Part shown: piece by piece, positions 12,254 through 21,295 of the stretch | Layout of the letters: each line of letters opens with the position of its first letter | Position numbering within the stretch: position 1 is the first letter of the stretch | Source of the DNA: Desulfobulbaceae bacterium UBA2273 | GTDB lineage: Bacteria; Desulfobacterota; Desulfobulbia; Desulfobulbales; Desulfurivibrionaceae | DNA length: 49,315 nt | Assembly: GCA_002347095.1 (NCBI GenBank) | Contig: DDWZ01000010.1 | Coordinates: forward strand, 1-49,315 | Reading direction: 5' to 3' | The notes under the pieces: generated by a model | The model's input: only the letters and a program-made list of their open reading frames with translations | Told to the model about the DNA's origin: nothing | The model's database searches: none | Translations under genes and position numbers: made by a program

Positions 12254-13729
12254 TTACGTCAAAGCCGCCGCAATTTCCCGAAAGCTGTTCAAGCCCGCCT
12301 CAAGATTGTCGATGATCTCCCCGGCCAACACGTCCGGCTCGGGCAGGTTGTCCAGATCGGCCAGGCTCTTGTCTTTGAGCCAGAAGATGTCCAGGCTGGT
12401 TTTATCACGACCGATGATCTGCTCGTAGCCGAATCTGCGCCAGCGCCCTTCCGGATTGTCCTGCTCGCTCCACAGTTCCTTGCGCGCCTGGCGGTTTTCC
12501 GGGTTGTAGCAAGCGATGAACTCCTGCAAATCCGCAAAGCGCAGCGGTTTCTTTTTCAGGGTGTGGTGGATGTTGGTGCGATAGTCGTAGTACCAGACCT
12601 CCTTGGTCCACACCTTCTTGGAAGCGGCGCGATTGTCAAAGAACAGGACATTGGCCTTCACCCCGTTGGCGTAGAAGATGCCGGTGGGCAGACGCAAAAT
12701 GGTGTGCAGTTCGGTGGTTTCCAGCAGCTTTTTGCGCACCGTCTCACCCGCGCCGCCCTCGAACAGCACGTTGTCCGGCACCACCACCGCCGCGCGCCCC
12801 GTGGTTTTCAGCATGGTACGGATGTGCTGCACGAAGTTGAGCTGCTTGTTGGAGGTGGTAGCCCAGAAATCCTGACGGTTGTAGGTCAGGTCGTCTTTTT
12901 CCTGCTCACCCTCCTCGTTGGTGAAGCTCATCGAGCTTTTCTTGCCGAATGGCGGATTGGCCAGCACGTAGTCGAAACGCTGGCCGCTGTCAGCCACCAG
13001 CGCATCGTTGGACGACACCATGCTCTCGCCGTCGATCTCGCCGATGTTGTGCAGAAACATGTTCATCAAGGCCAGGCGGCGGGTGCCCGCGACAATCTCG
13101 TTGCCGAAAAAGGTTTCGTGCTTGAGAAACGCCTTCTGCGTCTTGTCCAACCGGTGGGCAGCCACCAAAAAATCATAGGCCGCCAGAAAAAAACCGCCCG
13201 TGCCGCAGGCAGGATCGGCGATGGTCTTGCCCGGTTCCGGCCGCACGCACTCCACCATGGCCTTAATCAGGGCGCGCGGCGTGAAGTACTGCCCGGCCCC
13301 GGATTTGGTGTCCTCGGCGTTTTTCTCCAGCAACCCCTCGTAGATGTCGCCCTTCACATCCGCGCCCATGGTCACCCATTGGGTTTCGTTCACCATGTCG
13401 ATCAGGCGATAGAGCTTGGCCGGGTCCTGGATCTTGTTCTGGGCCTTGGTGAAGATCTGCCCCAGCATCCCCGGCTTGTTGCCCAGCTCACGGAGTAGGG
13501 TCACGTAATGTACCTCCAACTCCGCGCCGCGCATGGGCTTGAGGCTCTGCCAATTGTACTCGGTGGGAATACCCACCTTGCGGTTGTAGGGCGGCCGGCT
13601 ATACTCGTCCGCCATCTTGAGGAAGATCAGATAGGTGAGCTGCTCCAAATAGTCGCCATAGCTCACCCCGTCGTCGCGCAACGTGGTGCAGAAACTCCAA
13701 ACCTTGGAGATAATGGCTGCGGGGGTCAT
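12254..13729 (-). CDS. hsdM: Type I restriction-modification DNA methyltransferase subunit HsdM
   Basis: A 491-residue adenine-N6 methyltransferase subunit. The N-terminal helical HsdM domain (SKVWSFCTTLRDDGVSYGDYLEQL) is followed by motif I ADPACGTGGFF near residue 172 and the catalytic motif IV NPPFGKK near 256. It needs HsdS for DNA recognition. GAGGT precedes the ATG by 7 bases; that ribosome site is part of an 18-bp sequence also found at the end of the fic gene. It is the last gene of the hsdR-hsdS-fic-hsdM operon, separated from fic by an inserted unit. Confidence 0.95.
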   Translation of the reverse strand: MTPAAIISKVWSFCTTLRDDGVSYGDYLEQLTYLIFLKMADEYSRPPYNRKVGIPTEYNWQSLKPMRGAELEVHYVTLLRELGNKPGMLGQIFTKAQNKIQDPAKLYRLIDMVNETQWVTMGADVKGDIYEGLLEKNAEDTKSGAGQYFTPRALIKAMVECVRPEPGKTIADPACGTGGFFLAAYDFLVAAHRLDKTQKAFLKHETFFGNEIVAGTRRLALMNMFLHNIGEIDGESMVSSNDALVADSGQRFDYVLANPPFGKKSSMSFTNEEGEQEKDDLTYNRQDFWATTSNKQLNFVQHIRTMLKTTGRAAVVVPDNVLFEGGAGETVRKKLLETTELHTILRLPTGIFYANGVKANVLFFDNRAASKKVWTKEVWYYDYRTNIHHTLKKKPLRFADLQEFIACYNPENRQARKELWSEQDNPEGRWRRFGYEQIIGRDKTSLDIFWLKDKSLADLDNLPEPDVLAGEIIDNLEAGLNSFREIAAALT

Positions 13730-13770
13730 GTCTTAACCTCGAATAGGCTGTCATTCCGTCCACTATGCCC

Positions 13771-13797
13771 GTCATTCCCGCGCAGGCGGGAATCCAG
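13771..13797. repeat. REP palindrome family 1, left of the GIY-YIG gene
   Basis: The sequence GTCATTCCCGCGCAGGCGGG followed by AATCCAG has an internal hairpin ATTCCCGC/GCGGGAAT. Further copies occur at 14118-14185, 15336-15403 and 16324-16413, all inside the restriction island; none was seen elsewhere in the window. Confidence 0.85.
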
Positions 13798-13817
13798 TTT
13801 TTGAATGACTGCTCTGT

Positions 13818-14108
13818 TTAAAGCAACTCTTCCCACAAATCTTTCCATGTCGGATTCGTCTTCTCGATCAAATTTATTTTCCATTGCCTGTTCCATTTCT
13901 TGAGCTGCTTCTCTCGCTGAATCGCTAACAGCATCTGTTCATGAAATTCGTAATACGCCAGTGAATGAACCGCATATTTCTCTGCAAATCCTTCAACCAG
14001 ATCATTTTTGTGCTGCCAAATGCGCTGCACAAGATTGCTGGTTACACCGATATAAAGCGTGCCATTATATCCGCTCGTCAGAATATAAACCGCAGGGTGT
14101 TTTTCCAT
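13818..14108 (-). CDS. GIY-YIG domain endonuclease (YhbQ-like), REP-associated
   Basis: A 96-residue single-domain protein. AVYILTSGYNGTLYIGVTSNL carries the two-part motif (here VYI...LYIG) with the Arg of QRIWQH downstream; the EKYAVHSLAYYE segment supplies the catalytic-helix region and a conserved Glu. The frame is open to 14144, but the first 12 residues would come from the REP palindrome, so ATG 14108 (MEKHPAVYIL) is the likely start. Such short stand-alone GIY-YIG proteins are widespread with unclear roles; UvrC and homing nucleases share the fold. Flanked by REP palindromes, it may drive or have hitchhiked on the insertion. Confidence 0.88.
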   Translation of the reverse strand: MEKHPAVYILTSGYNGTLYIGVTSNLVQRIWQHKNDLVEGFAEKYAVHSLAYYEFHEQMLLAIQREKQLKKWNRQWKINLIEKTNPTWKDLWEELL

Positions 14109-14117
14109 AAAACGCCC

Positions 14118-14185
14118 GTCATTCCCGCGCAGGTGGGAAGCCATTCGGTTTAAAAGCTGGATTCCCGCCTGCGCGGGAATGACGG
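14118..14185. repeat. Paired inverted REP palindromes family 1 (REPIN), right of the GIY-YIG gene
   Basis: A forward copy (14118-14141, slightly degenerate: AGGTGGGAAG) and a reverse copy (14157-14184, GGATTCCCGCCTGCGCGGGA) are separated by about 15 bp. This head-to-head layout is that of REPIN doublets, and it lies just upstream of the GIY-YIG start. Confidence 0.8.
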
Positions 14186-14208
14186 ATTATTTGTATTTTG
14201 TGCATGTC

Positions 14209-15210
14209 TTAACCTCGAATCAGATTCATGATCAAATGAATCATCAGTTGTTTTTGGCCGGGATCGCTTTGCGCCACCAGCAAGGCGATTGCCGCCAGGG
14301 CGTTGTCGTTGATCTTCAACTCGCCGTCGGTTTTGAGATGGTGCTGGTTGCGCTGCAAGAACCAGATGAACAAAAAGGCGCCGATGCGTTTGTTGCCATC
14401 GGAAAACGGATGATTCTTGATGACGAAATACAACAGATGCGCCCCCTGCTCTTCGATGCTGGGATAAAGAAACTCCCCGCCAAACGACTGTACGATATTG
14501 CCGAGAATACCGGCAAAACTGTCGTCCTTCTGGTTACCAAACAGCTCGGAGGCTTCGTTTTTCGCCATCAAATCCGCCTTGAGCGCGGCAATGCCAGCCA
14601 CCGCTTCAGCAGGCAGGATTTCATAGCGTATCGCCGTGGCAAAATCACCCAGCGGCAGCCGCTCGCTGTCGAACTGGTTGAGCAGCACAAAGGTGCGGGC
14701 ATACCCGGCAATCACGCTCACCAGCCCGCGCGCCTCCGGCAGGCTGGCCTGCTCGATCAGATTTTGCTGAAACAGGGTCAGGGTTCGCTCAAGCTGCTTG
14801 ATATGTTCTTGCTGGGTTTGCAGACGTTGGGTGTTCAGGGTGTAGCCTTGCACCAGATAGTCTTTGAGGATGCGGCTGGCCCAGATGCGGAAGCGTGTGC
14901 CTTCAAGCGATTTGACGCGATATCCGACTGAAATAATAACATCCAGATTGTAATGCTCGACCTGATAAGTTTTTCCATCTGCGGCAGTATGTGCAAATTT
15001 TGCACATACTGAATTGGCCTCTAGCTCCCCTTCAGCAAAGATATTGCGCAAGTGTTTGTTGATAACCGACCGCTCTCGTCCAAACAATTGGCTGATCTGC
15101 TCCTGCTTTAGCCATACTGATTCGCCTTCCAGTCTGACCTCAGTGGCGATTGAGCCATTGGCGGATTGGTAAATGACGATGGGGGCAGCGGTGTTTTCTG
15201 GAGTAGTCAT
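14209..15210 (-). CDS. RhuM-Fic fusion protein in a type I restriction operon
   Basis: A 333-residue protein. The N-terminal part (about 1-115) is the RhuM/virulence domain with a DNA-binding look (WLKQEQISQLFGRERSVINKHLRNIF is helix-turn-helix-like). The C-terminal half is a Fic/DOC domain with HPFSDGNKRIGA near residue 266, the intact HPFx(D/E)GNxR motif expected for nucleotidyl transfer. LGNIVQSFGGEFLYPS precedes it as in Fic proteins. GGGAGGT lies 6 bases before the ATG. Genes of this family recur inside type I restriction loci. A regulator or a toxin released when restriction fails are possible roles, not shown here. Confidence 0.88.
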   Translation of the reverse strand: MTTPENTAAPIVIYQSANGSIATEVRLEGESVWLKQEQISQLFGRERSVINKHLRNIFAEGELEANSVCAKFAHTAADGKTYQVEHYNLDVIISVGYRVKSLEGTRFRIWASRILKDYLVQGYTLNTQRLQTQQEHIKQLERTLTLFQQNLIEQASLPEARGLVSVIAGYARTFVLLNQFDSERLPLGDFATAIRYEILPAEAVAGIAALKADLMAKNEASELFGNQKDDSFAGILGNIVQSFGGEFLYPSIEEQGAHLLYFVIKNHPFSDGNKRIGAFLFIWFLQRNQHHLKTDGELKINDNALAAIALLVAQSDPGQKQLMIHLIMNLIRG

Positions 15211-15314: not shown

Positions 15315-15335
15315 GAAAAAAGCCAATCTCCACTC

Positions 15336-15403
15336 CGTCATTCCCGCGCAGGCGGGAATCCAGTTTTTGAACGGCATGGATTCCCGCCTGCGCGGGAATG
15401 ACG
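15336..15403. repeat. Paired inverted REP palindromes family 1 (REPIN) between hsdS and fic
   Basis: A forward copy at 15336-15362 and a reverse copy at 15376-15402 face each other across about 13 bp (TTTTTGAACGGCA). Both match the family consensus almost perfectly. Confidence 0.88.
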
Positions 15404-15424
15404 ACACAGGTGTGCAAGGTACGA

Positions 15425-17065
15425 CTAACCACGCTTGCCCTTTTGGCGAACTACTAAATTTTCCTTAGCAGTTGCCCGCTCCGCCTTGATCCGCGCCAGC
15501 AGGGCCGAGGCGGGTTCGTCATGCGGGTCTTGCTCCACCAGTTGGCCGGAGAAGGCTTTTTTCAGGATGGATTGGCGCAGGGCTTCGGCTTGTTGCAGGG
15601 AGGTGGTGATGGTTTGGTCGAGTTGGTCGGCTTCGGAGAGGCATGATTCGATTTGGCCGATTATGGTCCGTTGTTCTTCAGCACTACACACAGGAATAAC
15701 AACATTTTTGAGTTGCGTTGTGTTAATACGCGGCCTCCCCACTCCATGAATGAGGGCCTCAAGCTGTTTAAATACATGCCGCGTTGACAGGAACATTACA
15801 GCGAAGGCATTACTCAACGTATCGCCGTAAAGCCTTACACAAAAACAATCCGCCTTGTTTATTGCGCGTTTAATGCTGGAAGGCAATAAAGCCACACGAA
15901 CATTCTCGGTAATGAATGACGAAAAAATGATGTCTCCCGATGACACCGTATGATTTTTCAGTAACTCGTATTTTGCCTCTGTAATGAATGATTCCTTGTC
16001 TTCGATAAATTCCAGCAACCCAATATTCTCAAGGCGAACAACTCGAACGCCACTGTCCACATAGTCACTACTTTTCAAATTCGAACCAAACGGACCATCC
16101 GATACATCTACATTTGTGTTGCCCAAGCGCGTCCAAACCCACCCCTCCGGCAGTTCAGGCAACTCGGCCAGTTCCTCGGCGGTGAGCGGCGGGAGAGGCT
16201 TCGGGGCTTTTGGCCTGCTGCCCTGTTTGCCGTTGGCTTCCCAGTCAGCGAGCTGTTGCTGAAAGCGTTGGGCGCGTTCGGCCTGGATGCGCTTGAGCAA
16301 GGCATCGGCGGTTTCGAGGGGTTTGTCATTCCCGCCCCCCATACTGTCATTCCCGCGCAGGCGGGAATCCATGTCGTTCAACGGCTGGACCCCCGCCTTC
16401 GCGGGGGTGACGAATCGCTCCGCACGCCACTGGGCGGTGAGCTTGCCCTCGAAGGCGTGTTTCAGCAAGGCCTGGCGATACACCTTGAGCTGCGCCTGGG
16501 CGGTTTTCAGGTTCTCGATGCCTTTGTCCAGCTCGGAAAACAGCTCCTCGATCTTGGCGACGATGCGGTGTTGTTCATTTGTGGGAGGGAGAGGGACTTC
16601 ACAAGCACTCAAAAAAGGGGTTGTCACGCGCCGTTGACCAACCGCCCCAGACATATTGTGTTCAGCCTCACGGCGAAAGGCTTGAGATGATACATAGTAG
16701 TAAACGTACTTTGCGGCCACGCCAGAAAAAGCACGAAGCACATGAAATTCGGTTGAGCCAAAGCCTATGCCGTTTCTAACTTCTGGCACTACGGCCATTT
16801 TCCCGTTTTCCATACAGGGGGTTATCTTGGCAAACAGAACATCCCCTTCAAGAAACGGTGTATAGCCCTTTTTAACTTCTAAAAATTTACGTTTTCCACT
16901 GACATCGATAATCCCGCTCTCAGCTTGTACTGCGGGCATCGGTACAAACGAAATATCTAGGTCGTCAGGTATTCCGGCTTTATCAATTGTCGGGTTTACA
17001 GAGGTGATCTCAGAAATCTTGGCATTACACCAAGTACGGGGCAGCACGCCAATGTTATCCATCAT
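15425..17065 (-). CDS. hsdS: Type I restriction-modification specificity subunit HsdS
   Basis: About 546 residues with two target-recognition domains (about 1-155 and 310-460), each followed by a coiled-coil spacer (AKIEELFSELDKGIENLKTAQ; GQIESCLSEADQLDQTITTS). It directs HsdM and HsdR to a bipartite site. The start is ATG at 17065 or one of the flanking GTG/ATG codons; the hsdR TGA overlaps it, so translation is probably coupled. Oddity: residues about 218-248, in the central region between the coiled coil and the LETADALLKRIQAER helix, are translated from REP palindromes (TPAKAGVQ...SRLRGNDS). The frame is kept, so the protein may still work with an extended linker. Confidence 0.93.
   Translation of the reverse strand: MMDNIGVLPRTWCNAKISEITSVNPTIDKAGIPDDLDISFVPMPAVQAESGIIDVSGKRKFLEVKKGYTPFLEGDVLFAKITPCMENGKMAVVPEVRNGIGFGSTEFHVLRAFSGVAAKYVYYYVSSQAFRREAEHNMSGAVGQRRVTTPFLSACEVPLPPTNEQHRIVAKIEELFSELDKGIENLKTAQAQLKVYRQALLKHAFEGKLTAQWRAERFVTPAKAGVQPLNDMDSRLRGNDSMGGGNDKPLETADALLKRIQAERAQRFQQQLADWEANGKQGSRPKAPKPLPPLTAEELAELPELPEGWVWTRLGNTNVDVSDGPFGSNLKSSDYVDSGVRVVRLENIGLLEFIEDKESFITEAKYELLKNHTVSSGDIIFSSFITENVRVALLPSSIKRAINKADCFCVRLYGDTLSNAFAVMFLSTRHVFKQLEALIHGVGRPRINTTQLKNVVIPVCSAEEQRTIIGQIESCLSEADQLDQTITTSLQQAEALRQSILKKAFSGQLVEQDPHDEPASALLARIKAERATAKENLVVRQKGKRG
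16324..16413. repeat. REP palindromes family 1 inside the hsdS coding sequence
   Basis: Three arms are seen: a partial GTCATTCCCGCC at 16324, a full copy at 16345-16372 and an inverted diverged copy (ACCCCCGCCTTCGCGGGGGT) ending at 16413. They insert about 30 codons in frame into hsdS. Confidence 0.88.
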
Positions 17066-19848
17066 CACGCCACCAACACTTCATTCAACTCATCCAGCAG
17101 CGTATCCATCCTCGCGCCGAACAACTGGTACATCCTGCCCAGCCCGCCCTGCCCGTCAAAGGGCGACATCTCCAGATCGTCGCGCTCGATGTGAAAGGAG
17201 TTGGCCACATGGTCGCGGACCATGCGCAGCCATTCCATCTGGGCTTCGTTGAATTTCTCGCCGGAGCCGGAATGGTGCTGCATGATCCAGTTCTGGAAGT
17301 TACGGCGCACGGTGTCGTCGAAGGTGGCGAGTTTGGCATCCATGCCGCAGACGCGGCGGATGAGGGCGACCAGGGCGGTGAGTTCGCTGATGGGCTGGGC
17401 GCCCTGGTAATTATCGAGCTGGCGGTATGCCTGCCAGACCCGCAGGGGGGCGAGCTTGGGCTTGTCGCTTTTGAGCTTCTCCAGCACCTGGCGGATCAGC
17501 TCGAAGCTCAGTTCGCGCCTCCGGTACGGCTGGCTAAAGAAGATGGTAAGTGCCGCGATCTTGTCCTGGTTGGCCTTCAGGTACTCGGCAAACTCGTCGG
17601 TGAGGGCCTGGGCGTTGTTGGCTGCATCCTTGTCCCATTCGGCGCGCAACACCGTATCGAGGTTGTCGTGGTCAATGGTCTGTTCCTTGTCGCGGCGGAT
17701 GGTATCGATGAGTTCCACCAGATCGCCGTTCAGCACCCGGGCCGCTTCGCGCACCAGTTGCTGTTGCGCCTGCTCCCGTTTGTCGTCGCCGGGGTCGCTG
17801 CCTGCGGGCAGACCCGTCAGCTCCAGGGCTCGGGCCTCGATGTTGTCACCGTCGATGGCCCCGAACAGCTTGCCGATGAGCTGGGTCAGCTCCATGCCTC
17901 CGGCAGCCTCCCGGATTTGCCGCTGCTCATCCGGGTTCAGTTGCTTGTTGAGCCGGGCCAACCGGCCGGCCAGGGAACTCACCGTGTCTGCATCGCTGGC
18001 CCCCATCATCACGCTCATGGCCAGGTCTTTCAGCGGCACGCTGGGCTTGGTGATCAGCGGCTGGCTGGCGGTCTTGAGCGATTTGGTTACGCCGATGGCA
18101 TCGACGATCACATAGTGGGTCTTGGCGCTGATTGCCGAGGGGGTGACCTTTTTCAGGTCGTCCATCTCCAGGGTGCGGGTGCCCCGCCCCTTCATCTGCT
18201 CGAAGTAGTTGCGGCTTTTCACGTCGCGCATGAAGAGCAGGCATTCCAGCGGCTTGACATCGGTGCCGGTGGCGATCATGTCCACGGTGACGGCGATGCG
18301 CGGGTGGTACTCATTACGGAATTGTTGCAAAACCGACTTGGGGTCTTCCTCGCTCTTGTAGGTGAGCTTTTTACAGAAGGCGTTGCCCTCGTCGAACTCC
18401 TCGCGCACCGTCTGGATGATGTCGTCGGCGTGGCTGTCGGTCTTGGCGAAGATCAGGGTCTTAGGCACCTCGGTGCGGCCGGGGAAAATCTCCGGCAGTT
18501 TGTTGCGAAAAGCGCGGATGACGGTGCGGATCTGATCGGGGTTGACGATGTGGCGGTCCAACTGGGTGGCGGAATAGGCCTCGTCCTCGTCCTGCTGCTC
18601 CCAGCGCCTTCGGCGGGTGAGCTTTTCGCGCTTTTCCACCTGCTGGCGGGCGCTGATCTTCGCGCCCTGTTGGGTGATCTCGGTTTCGATGACATAGATC
18701 TCATTGCCCACGTTGACGCCGTCGGCCACTGCCTTTTCGTGGCTGTAATCGCTGACCACGTTCTTCTTGAAAAAGCCGTAGGTGCGGTTGTCCGGCGTGG
18801 CGGTGAGGCCGATCAGGCTGGCGTCGAAATAATCGATCACCTGCTGCCACAGGTTGTAGATGGAGCGGTGGCACTCGTCGATGAAGATGAAATCGAAAAA
18901 CTCCGGCGGAACCTTTTCGTTGTACACCACCGGCATGGGCGTTTTGGGCTGGGCCAGCTCCGCCGGGTTGATCTCCTCGGCAGCCTCATCCAGCGGGGTA
19001 TCCTTGAGAATGGAGTAGAGCCGCTGGATGGTGCTGATGCAGACCTGGCTGTCCTTGGCAACGAAGGAGGATTTGAGCCGCTGCACGTTGTAGAGCTCGG
19101 TGAACTTGCGGTTGTCGTCGAGCGGCGTGTAGGACATCATCTCCTGCTCCGCCTGCTCGCCGAGGTTCTTGGTGTCCACCAAAAAGAGGACCCGCTTGCC
19201 GTGGGCGTGTTTGAGCAACCGATAGATGGCGGTGATGGCGGTGTAGGTCTTGCCCGCGCCGGTGGCCATCTGGATCAGAGCCCGGGGGCGGTCGGCCTTG
19301 AAGGAGGCTTCCAGATTGGCAATGGCGATTTCCTGGCAATCGCGCAACCGCAACTCCTTGGCAGGCAGGTGATCCGGGTTCAGCAATGGAAGGTACTGCA
19401 AACGCTCGCGCAGGCTGCTGCCCTGGGCCAGCCATTCCTTGAGGGTTTCCGGGCGGTGGAAACAGAAGACCTCGCGGGAACGGGGCTTGGGATCGAAACG
19501 GTTGGTAAAGCGGGTGAGGATGCCGGTGCTTTCATAGAGAAAGGGCAAGGGCTCCTTGTTATTGACCCATCTGAGTGTGGCTGTGGCATAGCCATCGGTC
19601 TGGGATTCATGGGTGGTGAGCCGCTGGCCTTCCTCGGCGCGTTTTGCCTCAACAACCCCCACGGCCTTGTGATCGACGAACAGCACATAATCCGCCGGGC
19701 CGACATCGGTGTGGTATTCCCGCACCGCCTGACCAACCCCGTCACCCAGATCGATTTTTTTGCTGTGCTGCACCGACCAGCCCGCCTGTCGCAACAAGGC
19801 ATCAATGGCGTCGCGGGCTTTCTGTTCGGGGTTCTGGTTTTCGCTCAT
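17065..19848 (-). CDS. hsdR: Type I restriction enzyme endonuclease/translocase subunit HsdR
   Basis: A 927-residue motor subunit. The N-terminal nuclease domain shows PADYVLFVDHKAVGVVEAKR (Asp53, Glu67, Lys69: PD-(D/E)XK). The helicase core has MATGAGKTYTA near 195 (Walker A), FIFIDECHRS near 322 (DECH box), LTATPDN, and QMKGRGTRT (motif VI). A C-terminal HsdM/S-contacting region follows. ATG 19848 is chosen because AGAAGG lies upstream and its ATGA overlaps the stop of the agmatinase gene; the frame is open beyond but without homology. First gene of the restriction operon. Confidence 0.95.
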   Translation of the reverse strand: MSENQNPEQKARDAIDALLRQAGWSVQHSKKIDLGDGVGQAVREYHTDVGPADYVLFVDHKAVGVVEAKRAEEGQRLTTHESQTDGYATATLRWVNNKEPLPFLYESTGILTRFTNRFDPKPRSREVFCFHRPETLKEWLAQGSSLRERLQYLPLLNPDHLPAKELRLRDCQEIAIANLEASFKADRPRALIQMATGAGKTYTAITAIYRLLKHAHGKRVLFLVDTKNLGEQAEQEMMSYTPLDDNRKFTELYNVQRLKSSFVAKDSQVCISTIQRLYSILKDTPLDEAAEEINPAELAQPKTPMPVVYNEKVPPEFFDFIFIDECHRSIYNLWQQVIDYFDASLIGLTATPDNRTYGFFKKNVVSDYSHEKAVADGVNVGNEIYVIETEITQQGAKISARQQVEKREKLTRRRRWEQQDEDEAYSATQLDRHIVNPDQIRTVIRAFRNKLPEIFPGRTEVPKTLIFAKTDSHADDIIQTVREEFDEGNAFCKKLTYKSEEDPKSVLQQFRNEYHPRIAVTVDMIATGTDVKPLECLLFMRDVKSRNYFEQMKGRGTRTLEMDDLKKVTPSAISAKTHYVIVDAIGVTKSLKTASQPLITKPSVPLKDLAMSVMMGASDADTVSSLAGRLARLNKQLNPDEQRQIREAAGGMELTQLIGKLFGAIDGDNIEARALELTGLPAGSDPGDDKREQAQQQLVREAARVLNGDLVELIDTIRRDKEQTIDHDNLDTVLRAEWDKDAANNAQALTDEFAEYLKANQDKIAALTIFFSQPYRRRELSFELIRQVLEKLKSDKPKLAPLRVWQAYRQLDNYQGAQPISELTALVALIRRVCGMDAKLATFDDTVRRNFQNWIMQHHSGSGEKFNEAQMEWLRMVRDHVANSFHIERDDLEMSPFDGQGGLGRMYQLFGARMDTLLDELNEVLVA

Positions 19849-20714: not shown

Positions 20715-20740
20715 TGTCTTTCCTGTAAAAAAACGGCTAC

Positions 20741-21295
20741 TCAGGCCGAACCAACCACATCGCCGAACAGGGCGATATCGATGCCGTGCCGCTGGGCCGC
20801 CTTTTGCCACCGCAACCTGTCCGGCGTATGAAAAATGATGTCGTCATCCGCGGGCAGAGTGAGCCACCCGTCCACGGTGAGTTCTGCTTCAAGCTGTCCA
20901 GGCCCCCAGCCGGAATAGCCCAGGGCCACCAGCAGATTCCGCGGCCCCTGGCCTGCGGCGAGATCATAGAGCAACTGCGGGTCACTGGTGAGATGAACGG
21001 ACTTGCTCACCGCCAAAAAATGCTCTGCCCGATACTCGGAGCTGTAGAGAAAAAAGGCGTTTGCCACCTCCACCGGCCCGCCCAGATACACCGTGGGCAT
21101 CAGCCCGGGCGGCAGCGGGATATCGGCGCTCTTGAAAACATCCGCCAGGCTGATATCGGTAATGGGCTCGTTCACCACCAGTCCCATGGCCCCGTCGTCG
21201 TTATGGGCGCAGAGATAGACAACCTTGCCGGCAAAACGGGGGTCTTCCATCTGGGGGGTGGCAATGAGAAAATAGCCTTGCAGGGTTTCGATCAT
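20741..21295 (-). CDS. YqgE/AlgH family protein (UPF0301)
   Basis: About 184 residues. GYFLIATPQMEDPRFAGKVVYLCAHNDDGAMGLVVNEP is the family signature, followed by VYLGGPVE and ALGYSGWGPGQLEAEL. The function is not established; homologues were linked to alginate regulation and transcription. ATG 21295 aligns with the usual start just before the FLIATP motif; the frame is open to 21355. It lies 26 bp upstream of the agmatinase gene on the same strand, so the two are probably co-transcribed. Confidence 0.9.
   Translation of the reverse strand: MIETLQGYFLIATPQMEDPRFAGKVVYLCAHNDDGAMGLVVNEPITDISLADVFKSADIPLPPGLMPTVYLGGPVEVANAFFLYSSEYRAEHFLAVSKSVHLTSDPQLLYDLAAGQGPRNLLVALGYSGWGPGQLEAELTVDGWLTLPADDDIIFHTPDRLRWQKAAQRHGIDIALFGDVVGSA

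What the first reader, a model, noticed from the sequence alone, without database searches (positions are those of the whole stretch)
13727..14220. A REP-bounded GIY-YIG nuclease unit that inserted with an 18-bp duplication and kept both host genes intact
Seen: CATGTCTTAACCTCGAAT flanks the unit on both sides. One copy preserves the fic stop, the other the hsdM ribosome site and ATG; deleting 476 bp restores a tight operon. Inside is a lone GIY-YIG gene with REP palindromes on both sides. Known: REP doublets are usually moved by RAYT tyrosine transposases, and none is here. Inference: a GIY-YIG nuclease may itself cut at or mobilise REP palindromes, making a minimal REP-homing element.
Basis: partly seen in the sequence, partly recalled or inferred. 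Interest (0 to 1): 0.85.

Follow-up and report, generated by a model that had tools for sequence, protein, structure and literature searches.

The report
REP-flanked nuclease gene beside hsdM
A tiny DNA-cutting-enzyme gene wrapped in short hairpin repeats sits between two genes of a bacterial immune operon, bounded by an exact 18-letter repeat; the enzyme-hairpin partnership recurs across many bacterial phyla, but whether the enzyme moves the hairpins is unproven.

Summary
CATGTCTTAACCTCGAAT occurs twice, 476 bp apart. A same-genus genome, G015, has the unit-free fic-hsdM junction with one copy; its flanks, 96-97% identical, overlap by exactly 18 bp. The insert is 458 bp: a REP dimer, a 96-aa GIY-YIG gene, one REP.

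The REPs are CGTC-type, not the GTAG-type served by RAYTs; a 2013 survey says CGTC REPs lack a dedicated transposase. The partnership is general: 85 of 89 loci carry CGTC-type arms within 250 bp, 65 of 89 on both sides, against 25 and 0 of 424 control windows (motifs chosen on these data). From memory, the protein is an Ssn-type single-strand nuclease.

In 9 of the 10 best-matching loci (Nitrosomonadales) this gene already precedes a closely related hsdM; the cassette looks resident in this operon family, and G015 may be a loss or another operon type. Five other sites compared with cassette-free relatives showed no clean long duplication, though some were too diverged to read. Mobilisation by the nuclease is open but testable.

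The parts
13727..13744 (+). 18-bp direct repeat, copy at the hsdM start (RBS + ATG on the - strand)
   Evidence: single copy in G015
14203..14220 (+). 18-bp direct repeat, copy at the fic end (holds the fic stop codon)
13745..14202 (.). 458-bp insert relative to the G015 allele; G+C 46% against 57% for the window
13818..14108 (-). GIY-YIG nuclease gene (96 aa, Ssn-like); the longer ORF 13818-14144 starts inside a REP
   Evidence: Pfam PF01541 E 7.3e-15; 96-aa homologues; alignment
13769..13797 (+). single CGTC REP downstream of the gene, tag facing outwards
14116..14143 (+). REP of the upstream dimer, tag towards the gene (two changes in stem and tail)
14158..14185 (-). REP of the upstream dimer, tag facing outwards
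   Evidence: dimer folds at -35.9 kcal/mol, z -9.3
13745..13768 (.). 24 bp between repeat and REP, holding a partial REP end
14186..14202 (.). 17 bp between REP and repeat; not an inverted repeat of the other end
12254..13729 (-). hsdM of the type I RM operon
   Evidence: Pfam N6_Mtase, HsdM_N
14209..15210 (-). fic gene with RhuM-type N-terminal region
   Evidence: Pfam Virulence_RhuM, Fic
15335..15404 (.). second REP dimer, between hsdS and fic
   Evidence: a REP dimer also follows hsdS in N. mobilis
15425..17068 (-). hsdS; contains an in-frame REP pair
   Evidence: Methylase_S; REP at 16344, peptide

Best explanation
The unit is a CGTC-REP/GIY-YIG cassette: a small Ssn-like nuclease gene lying in the spacer of head-out CGTC REPs. 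The partnership recurs in many phyla (shown by comparison). Here the cassette occupies an accessory slot in front of hsdM of a type I RM operon that the window's lineage and Nitrosomonadales appear to share horizontally (inferred: hsdM 92% to N. mobilis, 83% to the next copy in the window's family); in Nitrosomonadales the gene is a usual neighbour of hsdM (shown for 9 loci). The 18-bp repeat is the fic-end/hsdM-start junction present twice. It arose when cassette and fic-hsdM junction were combined, by insertion with an 18-bp duplication or by a swap of operon blocks joined just behind the hsdM ATG, and it allows exact loss of the cassette (inferred). The protein most likely nicks single-stranded DNA at its own REP type (inferred from recalled Ssn biochemistry and from REP type following gene clade). 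This could make REPs points of strand entry and recombination that help cassette and REPs persist; transposition by the enzyme is not required.
For: REP association: 85 of 89 loci any, 65 of 89 both sides, controls 25 and 0 of 424; strict hairpins head-out on both sides 41 of 92 against 1 of 437. REP type on the gene tree: 20 changes, shuffles mean 35.4, minimum 32 of 300. REP counts higher in the 13 genomes with the gene than in 45 without, p 0.0025; genus 5 against 12, p 0.007. ssn is the gene before hsdM in 9 of the 10 best loci. Similar divergence of ssn and hsdM from N. mobilis. Similar right junction in N. mobilis: GGAATGACGGCTT-ATTTGAGGTCAGGATATG against GGAATGACAGCCT-ATTCGAGGTTAAGACATG. 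hsdM identities 92% (L035) and 83% (G025). Unit-free G015 allele. Other genes precede related hsdM elsewhere: a VapC-family toxin in two Methylomonas plasmids, hsdS itself in a Vibrio plasmid, a DinD/BRO-like ORF (my naming) beside ssn in L041 and L043.
Against: The two 18-bp copies are identical while N. mobilis differs at 4 of 18, which points to a fairly recent duplication; plain insertion with target duplication explains that most simply. Only one of the nine hsdM-linked relatives (L035) has a right junction like the window's, and by eye none has a left copy of the 18-mer. The gene tree is weak (10 of 86 inner branches well supported). REP classes were defined on the same loci that were counted; the genome comparison is not corrected for kinship. 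Ssn biochemistry is recalled; the paper is not held.
Confidence: 0.62

Rival explanations
1. REP homing: the nuclease cuts its REPs and drives insertion of the REP-ssn cassette; the window shows a recent insertion into a G015-like junction with an 18-bp target duplication.
For: Exact 18-bp overlap against the unit-free allele; identical copies; presence/absence of ssn at further orthologous sites; gene-less dimers share outer sequence with a cassette, by eye; a gene-less REP pair in G047 keeps ATGCCC at the place of the ssn start; REP counts correlate with the gene; G004 shows a 7-bp repeat AATCAAT next to a REP tag.
Against: Insert ends lie 17 and 24 bp outside the REPs and are not inverted repeats; no clean long duplication at the five other sites; the ssn-hsdM link is not peculiar to the window; GIY-YIG enzymes are nucleases, and no strand-transfer activity is known to me.
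Confidence: 0.2
2. Operon recombination: a fic-type operon (hsdS-fic-hsdM, as G015) and an ssn-type operon (hsdS-ssn-hsdM, as N. mobilis) recombined; both 18-bp copies are the hsdM ribosome site and start, joined illegitimately just behind the ATG.
For: Both operon types exist; left neighbours of ssn vary while ssn-hsdM is kept; right junctions of window and N. mobilis resemble each other.
Against: Needs an illegitimate join exactly after the ATG and an ssn-type parent with an identical 18-mer, which was not found; hsdM of the window is 91-99% identical to G015 in every 150-bp bin, with no switch to an N. mobilis-like stretch.
Confidence: 0.35
3. Old insertion with an 18-bp duplication in the ancestor of window and N. 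mobilis operons; N. mobilis later lost fic and the left copy by REP-REP recombination, G015 lost the cassette by recombination between the 18-mers.
For: Explains all three arrangements with one gain; REP dimers lie at the right places.
Against: Copies that old should differ, unless converted or constrained.
Confidence: 0.2
4. Passenger of an ordinary insertion sequence or MITE.
For: Gene-less dimers in the genus sit in several larger repeat frames; one has TATTG...CAATA ends.
Against: The window insert shows none of these ends and no terminal inverted repeat outside the REPs.
Confidence: 0.08

Closest known systems
Ssn, site-specific single-stranded nucleases of the GIY-YIG superfamily (Neisseria meningitidis; Nature Communications 2025; recalled, paper not held)
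   Same: Small lone GIY-YIG protein; 59% identity to a N. gonorrhoeae and 65% to a N. dentiae homologue; flanked by dRS3-like CGTC repeats
   Different: Seen here in a type I RM operon with an 18-bp repeat and a unit-free allele; no biochemistry done. That the Neisseria rows are Ssn itself is recalled.
CGTC REP super-family (Di Nocera 2013, PMC3733652; abstract, section on dimers and passages seen)
   Same: CGTC tag, 8-bp stem, short loop, CCA tail, dimers; dRS3 of Neisseria belongs here
   Different: The passages I saw report no dedicated mobilising gene; here a GIY-YIG gene occupies the dimer spacer
RAYT/REPtron (GTAG REPs with IS200/IS605-like transposase)
   Same: Nuclease gene flanked by inverted REPs, with gene-less doublets elsewhere in the genome
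   Different: GIY-YIG instead of HUH Y1; CGTC instead of GTAG
Free-standing GIY-YIG homing endonucleases (recalled)
   Same: Selfish-looking lone nuclease gene, patchy distribution
   Different: No cognate intact target shown; occurs with repeats rather than at one site

Membership tests
Ssn GIY-YIG family | single small GIY-YIG domain | tested here: met
   PF01541 7.3e-15; 96 aa
Ssn GIY-YIG family | full-length similarity to the Neisseria member | tested here: met
   59% and 65% to N. gonorrhoeae and N. dentiae rows; that these are Ssn is recalled
Ssn GIY-YIG family | cognate repeats next to the gene | tested here: met
   that the repeats are the enzyme's target is inferred
Ssn GIY-YIG family | sequence-specific cleavage of single-stranded DNA only | not testable with these tools
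   needs biochemistry
CGTC REP super-family | CGTC tag, 8-9 bp stem, 4-5 nt loop, CCA tail | tested here: met
RAYT/REPtron | HUH Y1 transposase gene inside the unit | tested here: not met
   the coding gene found in the insert is GIY-YIG; Y1 genes exist elsewhere in G000, their flanks were not examined
RAYT/REPtron | GTAG-tagged REPs | tested here: not met
   tags are CGTC
DDE transposon or MITE | terminal inverted repeats at the insert ends | tested here: not met
   ends AGGCTGTCATT / TTTTGTG are unrelated; the inverted repeats found are the inner REPs
DDE transposon or MITE | target-site duplication | tested here: inconclusive
   18 bp exact here, origin disputed; none clean at five other sites
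GIY-YIG homing endonuclease | cuts the cassette-free allele at the insertion point | not testable with these tools
   assay needed

The most novel reading that the evidence does not exclude
Ssn-type GIY-YIG nucleases are the missing mobilising enzymes of CGTC REPs: the ssn gene in a REP-dimer spacer is the autonomous element, ordinary CGTC dimers are its gene-less derivatives, and the window shows an insertion with an 18-bp duplication.
Probability: 0.2. Interest if true: 0.85.

Novelty: new member of a known kind. Interest (0 to 1): 0.5.

Why it matters
CGTC REPs are widespread bacterial repeats, and a 2013 survey left open what spreads them. A nuclease gene that lies inside the repeats across phyla, and whose clade goes with the repeat type, is an obvious candidate and makes the question testable in a laboratory strain. 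The operon also ties such a nuclease to a type I RM system.

Tried and rejected
Direct-repeat scan of the loci: in the loci I read out long direct repeats beside homologous genes were REPs or dimer spacers, not target duplications; among those only the window repeat is host gene sequence. Six control values of 350 in that scan are an artefact of short flanks and were ignored. Other polymorphic sites: the second site of the genus (G007/G011/G015) and pntAB of G056/G099 are too diverged to read a duplication; sufBC of Azospirillum lipoferum against three relatives (spacer diverged) and fnrL of Sphingobium against three show presence/absence but no clean duplication, and two of the Sphingobium relatives hold a single symmetrical palindrome there; G004 gives only 7 bp. 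Phage and virus carriage: no homologue in 50,697 phage records at E 1e-5 or in IMG/VR with the peptide patterns used. Solved structures: no convincing sequence match. Same-genus descent of the gene: unlikely, since the nearest rows are Nitrosomonadales (88% to L036, against 72-74% to G007 and G011). The strict stem detector missed imperfect stems (42 of 92 loci lacked a strict hit on one side or both), hence the motif count, which is post hoc.

Rows dropped: one search left out loci under 45% identity, L005, L030, L031, L046 (duplicates or fragments) and loci with under 150 bp of flank; searches also L001 (replaced by the window), L018, L019, and L041, L056 (stop in the aligned piece). Literature: seven searches, judged from their listings, showed no paper joining GIY-YIG genes with REP or dRS3 repeats in the held library; the Ssn paper is recalled and not held, so this is no proof of absence.
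Full report
WHAT IS THERE. Between fic and hsdM of a type I RM operon (all on the minus strand) lies a 458-bp stretch bounded by an exact 18-bp direct repeat, CATGTCTTAACCTCGAAT, at 13727-13744 and 14203-14220. One copy carries the end of fic with its stop, the other the hsdM ribosome site and ATG. Inside are a REP dimer (14116-14143 and 14158-14185), a GIY-YIG gene, and a single REP (13769-13797). Most of the 120 listed homologues are 96 aa, so I place the gene at 13818-14108; most of the 12 extra residues of the 108-aa ORF are translated REP. The dimer strand folds at -35.9 kcal/mol, z -9.3. The insert has 46% G+C against 57% for the window.

UNIT-FREE ALLELE. Searching hsdM in 146 genomes of the order gave one 99% relative, G015 of the same genus. 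Its junction reads fic-ATTCGAGGTTAAGACATG-hsdM with a single copy. blastn of the window against 19.5 kb of G015 gives two pieces, 95.9% and 96.8% identical, that overlap in G015 by exactly 18 bp. So the presence/absence difference is real and exact. With one unit-free genome its direction is not shown.

THE REPS. They start with the CGTC tag, have an 8-bp stem and a CCA tail: the CGTC super-family of Di Nocera and colleagues (PMC3733652; abstract, section on dimers and passages seen). That paper says CGTC repeats are not associated with transposase genes and calls their mobilisation future work. RAYTs belong to GTAG repeats, so the absence of a RAYT here is no anomaly. Y1 transposase genes exist elsewhere in the genome (3 matches, 2 over the family cut-off); I did not examine their flanks.

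A GENERAL PARTNERSHIP. The protein search found 4630 relatives and listed 120; the DNA scan kept the best 80 of 286 confirmed stretches, from nine phylum labels in the tree. With a strict hairpin detector, head-out REPs lie within 250 bp on both sides in 41 of 92 loci against 1 of 437 displaced control windows. With seven stem classes read off the loci themselves, 85 of 89 loci have an arm within 250 bp and 65 of 89 on both sides, against 25 and 0 of 424 controls. In compact cases the gene simply occupies the spacer of a REP dimer (L056, L091, L099, L104). Stem class follows the gene tree: 20 changes against a shuffled mean of 35.4 and minimum of 32 in 300, on a poorly resolved tree. In 58 related genomes the count of one REP type is higher where the gene is present (13 against 45 genomes, p 0.0025; within the genus 5 against 12, p 0.007; no correction for kinship, and G015 was counted as present although its gene is interrupted).

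HINTS OF AN ELEMENT. In the genus, gene-less REP dimers share outer sequence (TTGCTTCGGTGGTTAAA...) with the ssn cassette of a second site (by eye). In pntAB of another genus, G056 and G099 carry ssn while G047 carries a gene-less REP pair that still has ATGCCC where ssn starts. ssn is present or absent at orthologous sites in several lineages. None of these five other sites shows a clean long duplication: the second genus site, pntAB and the sufBC spacer are too diverged to read well, fnrL shows none, and G004 shows 7 bp. The gene-less dimers also sit in several different larger frames, one with TATTG...CAATA ends, so other transposases may move them.

AGAINST A FRESH INSERTION HERE. The nearest relatives of the window gene are not the same-genus copies (72-74%) but Nitrosomonas and Gallionellaceae genes (up to 88%). 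In 9 of the 10 best loci (all but L037) that gene precedes an hsdM 87-93% identical to the window's, behind hsdS or another gene. Beyond these and the window itself only L053 gave an hsdM match above 30%. The gene and hsdM are about equally diverged from N. mobilis (86.6% over 276 bp; 79-89% per 150-bp bin), and the N. mobilis right junction resembles the window's, with a REP end five bases before the ribosome site; the other eight right junctions do not, and by eye none of the nine has a left copy of the 18-mer. What stands left of ssn varies: fic, a truncated RhuM-like frame (L043), a DinD/BRO-like ORF (my naming), or hsdS. In two Methylomonas plasmids a VapC-family toxin precedes the related hsdM, in a Vibrio plasmid hsdS does. 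So the place before hsdM looks like an accessory slot, and ssn like an established tenant of it.

READING. I think the cassette came with, or was recombined within, this RM operon family, and that the 18-bp repeat is the fic-hsdM junction present twice. Identity of both copies, against 4 differences in N. mobilis, says that the doubling is fairly recent. Insertion with target duplication, a block swap joined behind the ATG, and an old insertion with loss in G015 all remain possible. For function I rely on recalled work on Ssn nucleases (site-specific, single-strand only, targets in repeats, influence on transformation); the alignment to Neisseria homologues (59-65%) is consistent with this. 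That the enzyme mobilises REPs is the most novel reading not excluded; I give it 0.2.

Noticed in passing
window 16340-16375 and L041 1-100: hsdS carries an in-frame REP pair (peptide VTPAKAGVQ...DSRLRGND); a similar DSRLRGND peptide is in hsdS of a Nitrosomonadales relative (L041), so REP sequence has become part of a specificity subunit in both.
   Followed up: partly
window 14858-15210 against L191 7655-8000: The fic gene matches G015 at 97% only in its C-terminal part; the RhuM-type N-terminal part is different, like a domain swap.
   Followed up: partly
L191 13365-13525 (window 20723-20741): G015 has a REP heterodimer between two genes where the window has none.
   Followed up: partly
L197 (G015 C18 site): ssn in G015 is interrupted by a further short insertion whose ends look inverted (GGGAGCCTTGAAAAA...TTTTTCAAGGTTCCC) with CTTAAG on both sides, seen by eye.
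   Followed up: no
L279, L280 (Sphingobium): At the site where sister plasmids carry REP-ssn-REP these two have one symmetrical palindrome tagged at both ends, like a deletion scar between the two REPs.
   Followed up: partly
L203 (Planktothrix agardhii plasmid): The homologue lies between an MmeI-type restriction enzyme and DISARM drmA, another defence neighbourhood.
   Followed up: no
L245-L274: CGTC REP dimers in this genus sit in several larger repeat frames that look unrelated (one with TATTG...CAATA ends, one within a GAGGCTCTTGCAAAATGA-like inverted repeat).
   Followed up: partly
L283-L306: The junction hit by ssn in G004 is a turnover spot: relatives hold a few bases, a short repeat pair or a stretch of some 550 bp that looks like an extra gene there.
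   Followed up: no
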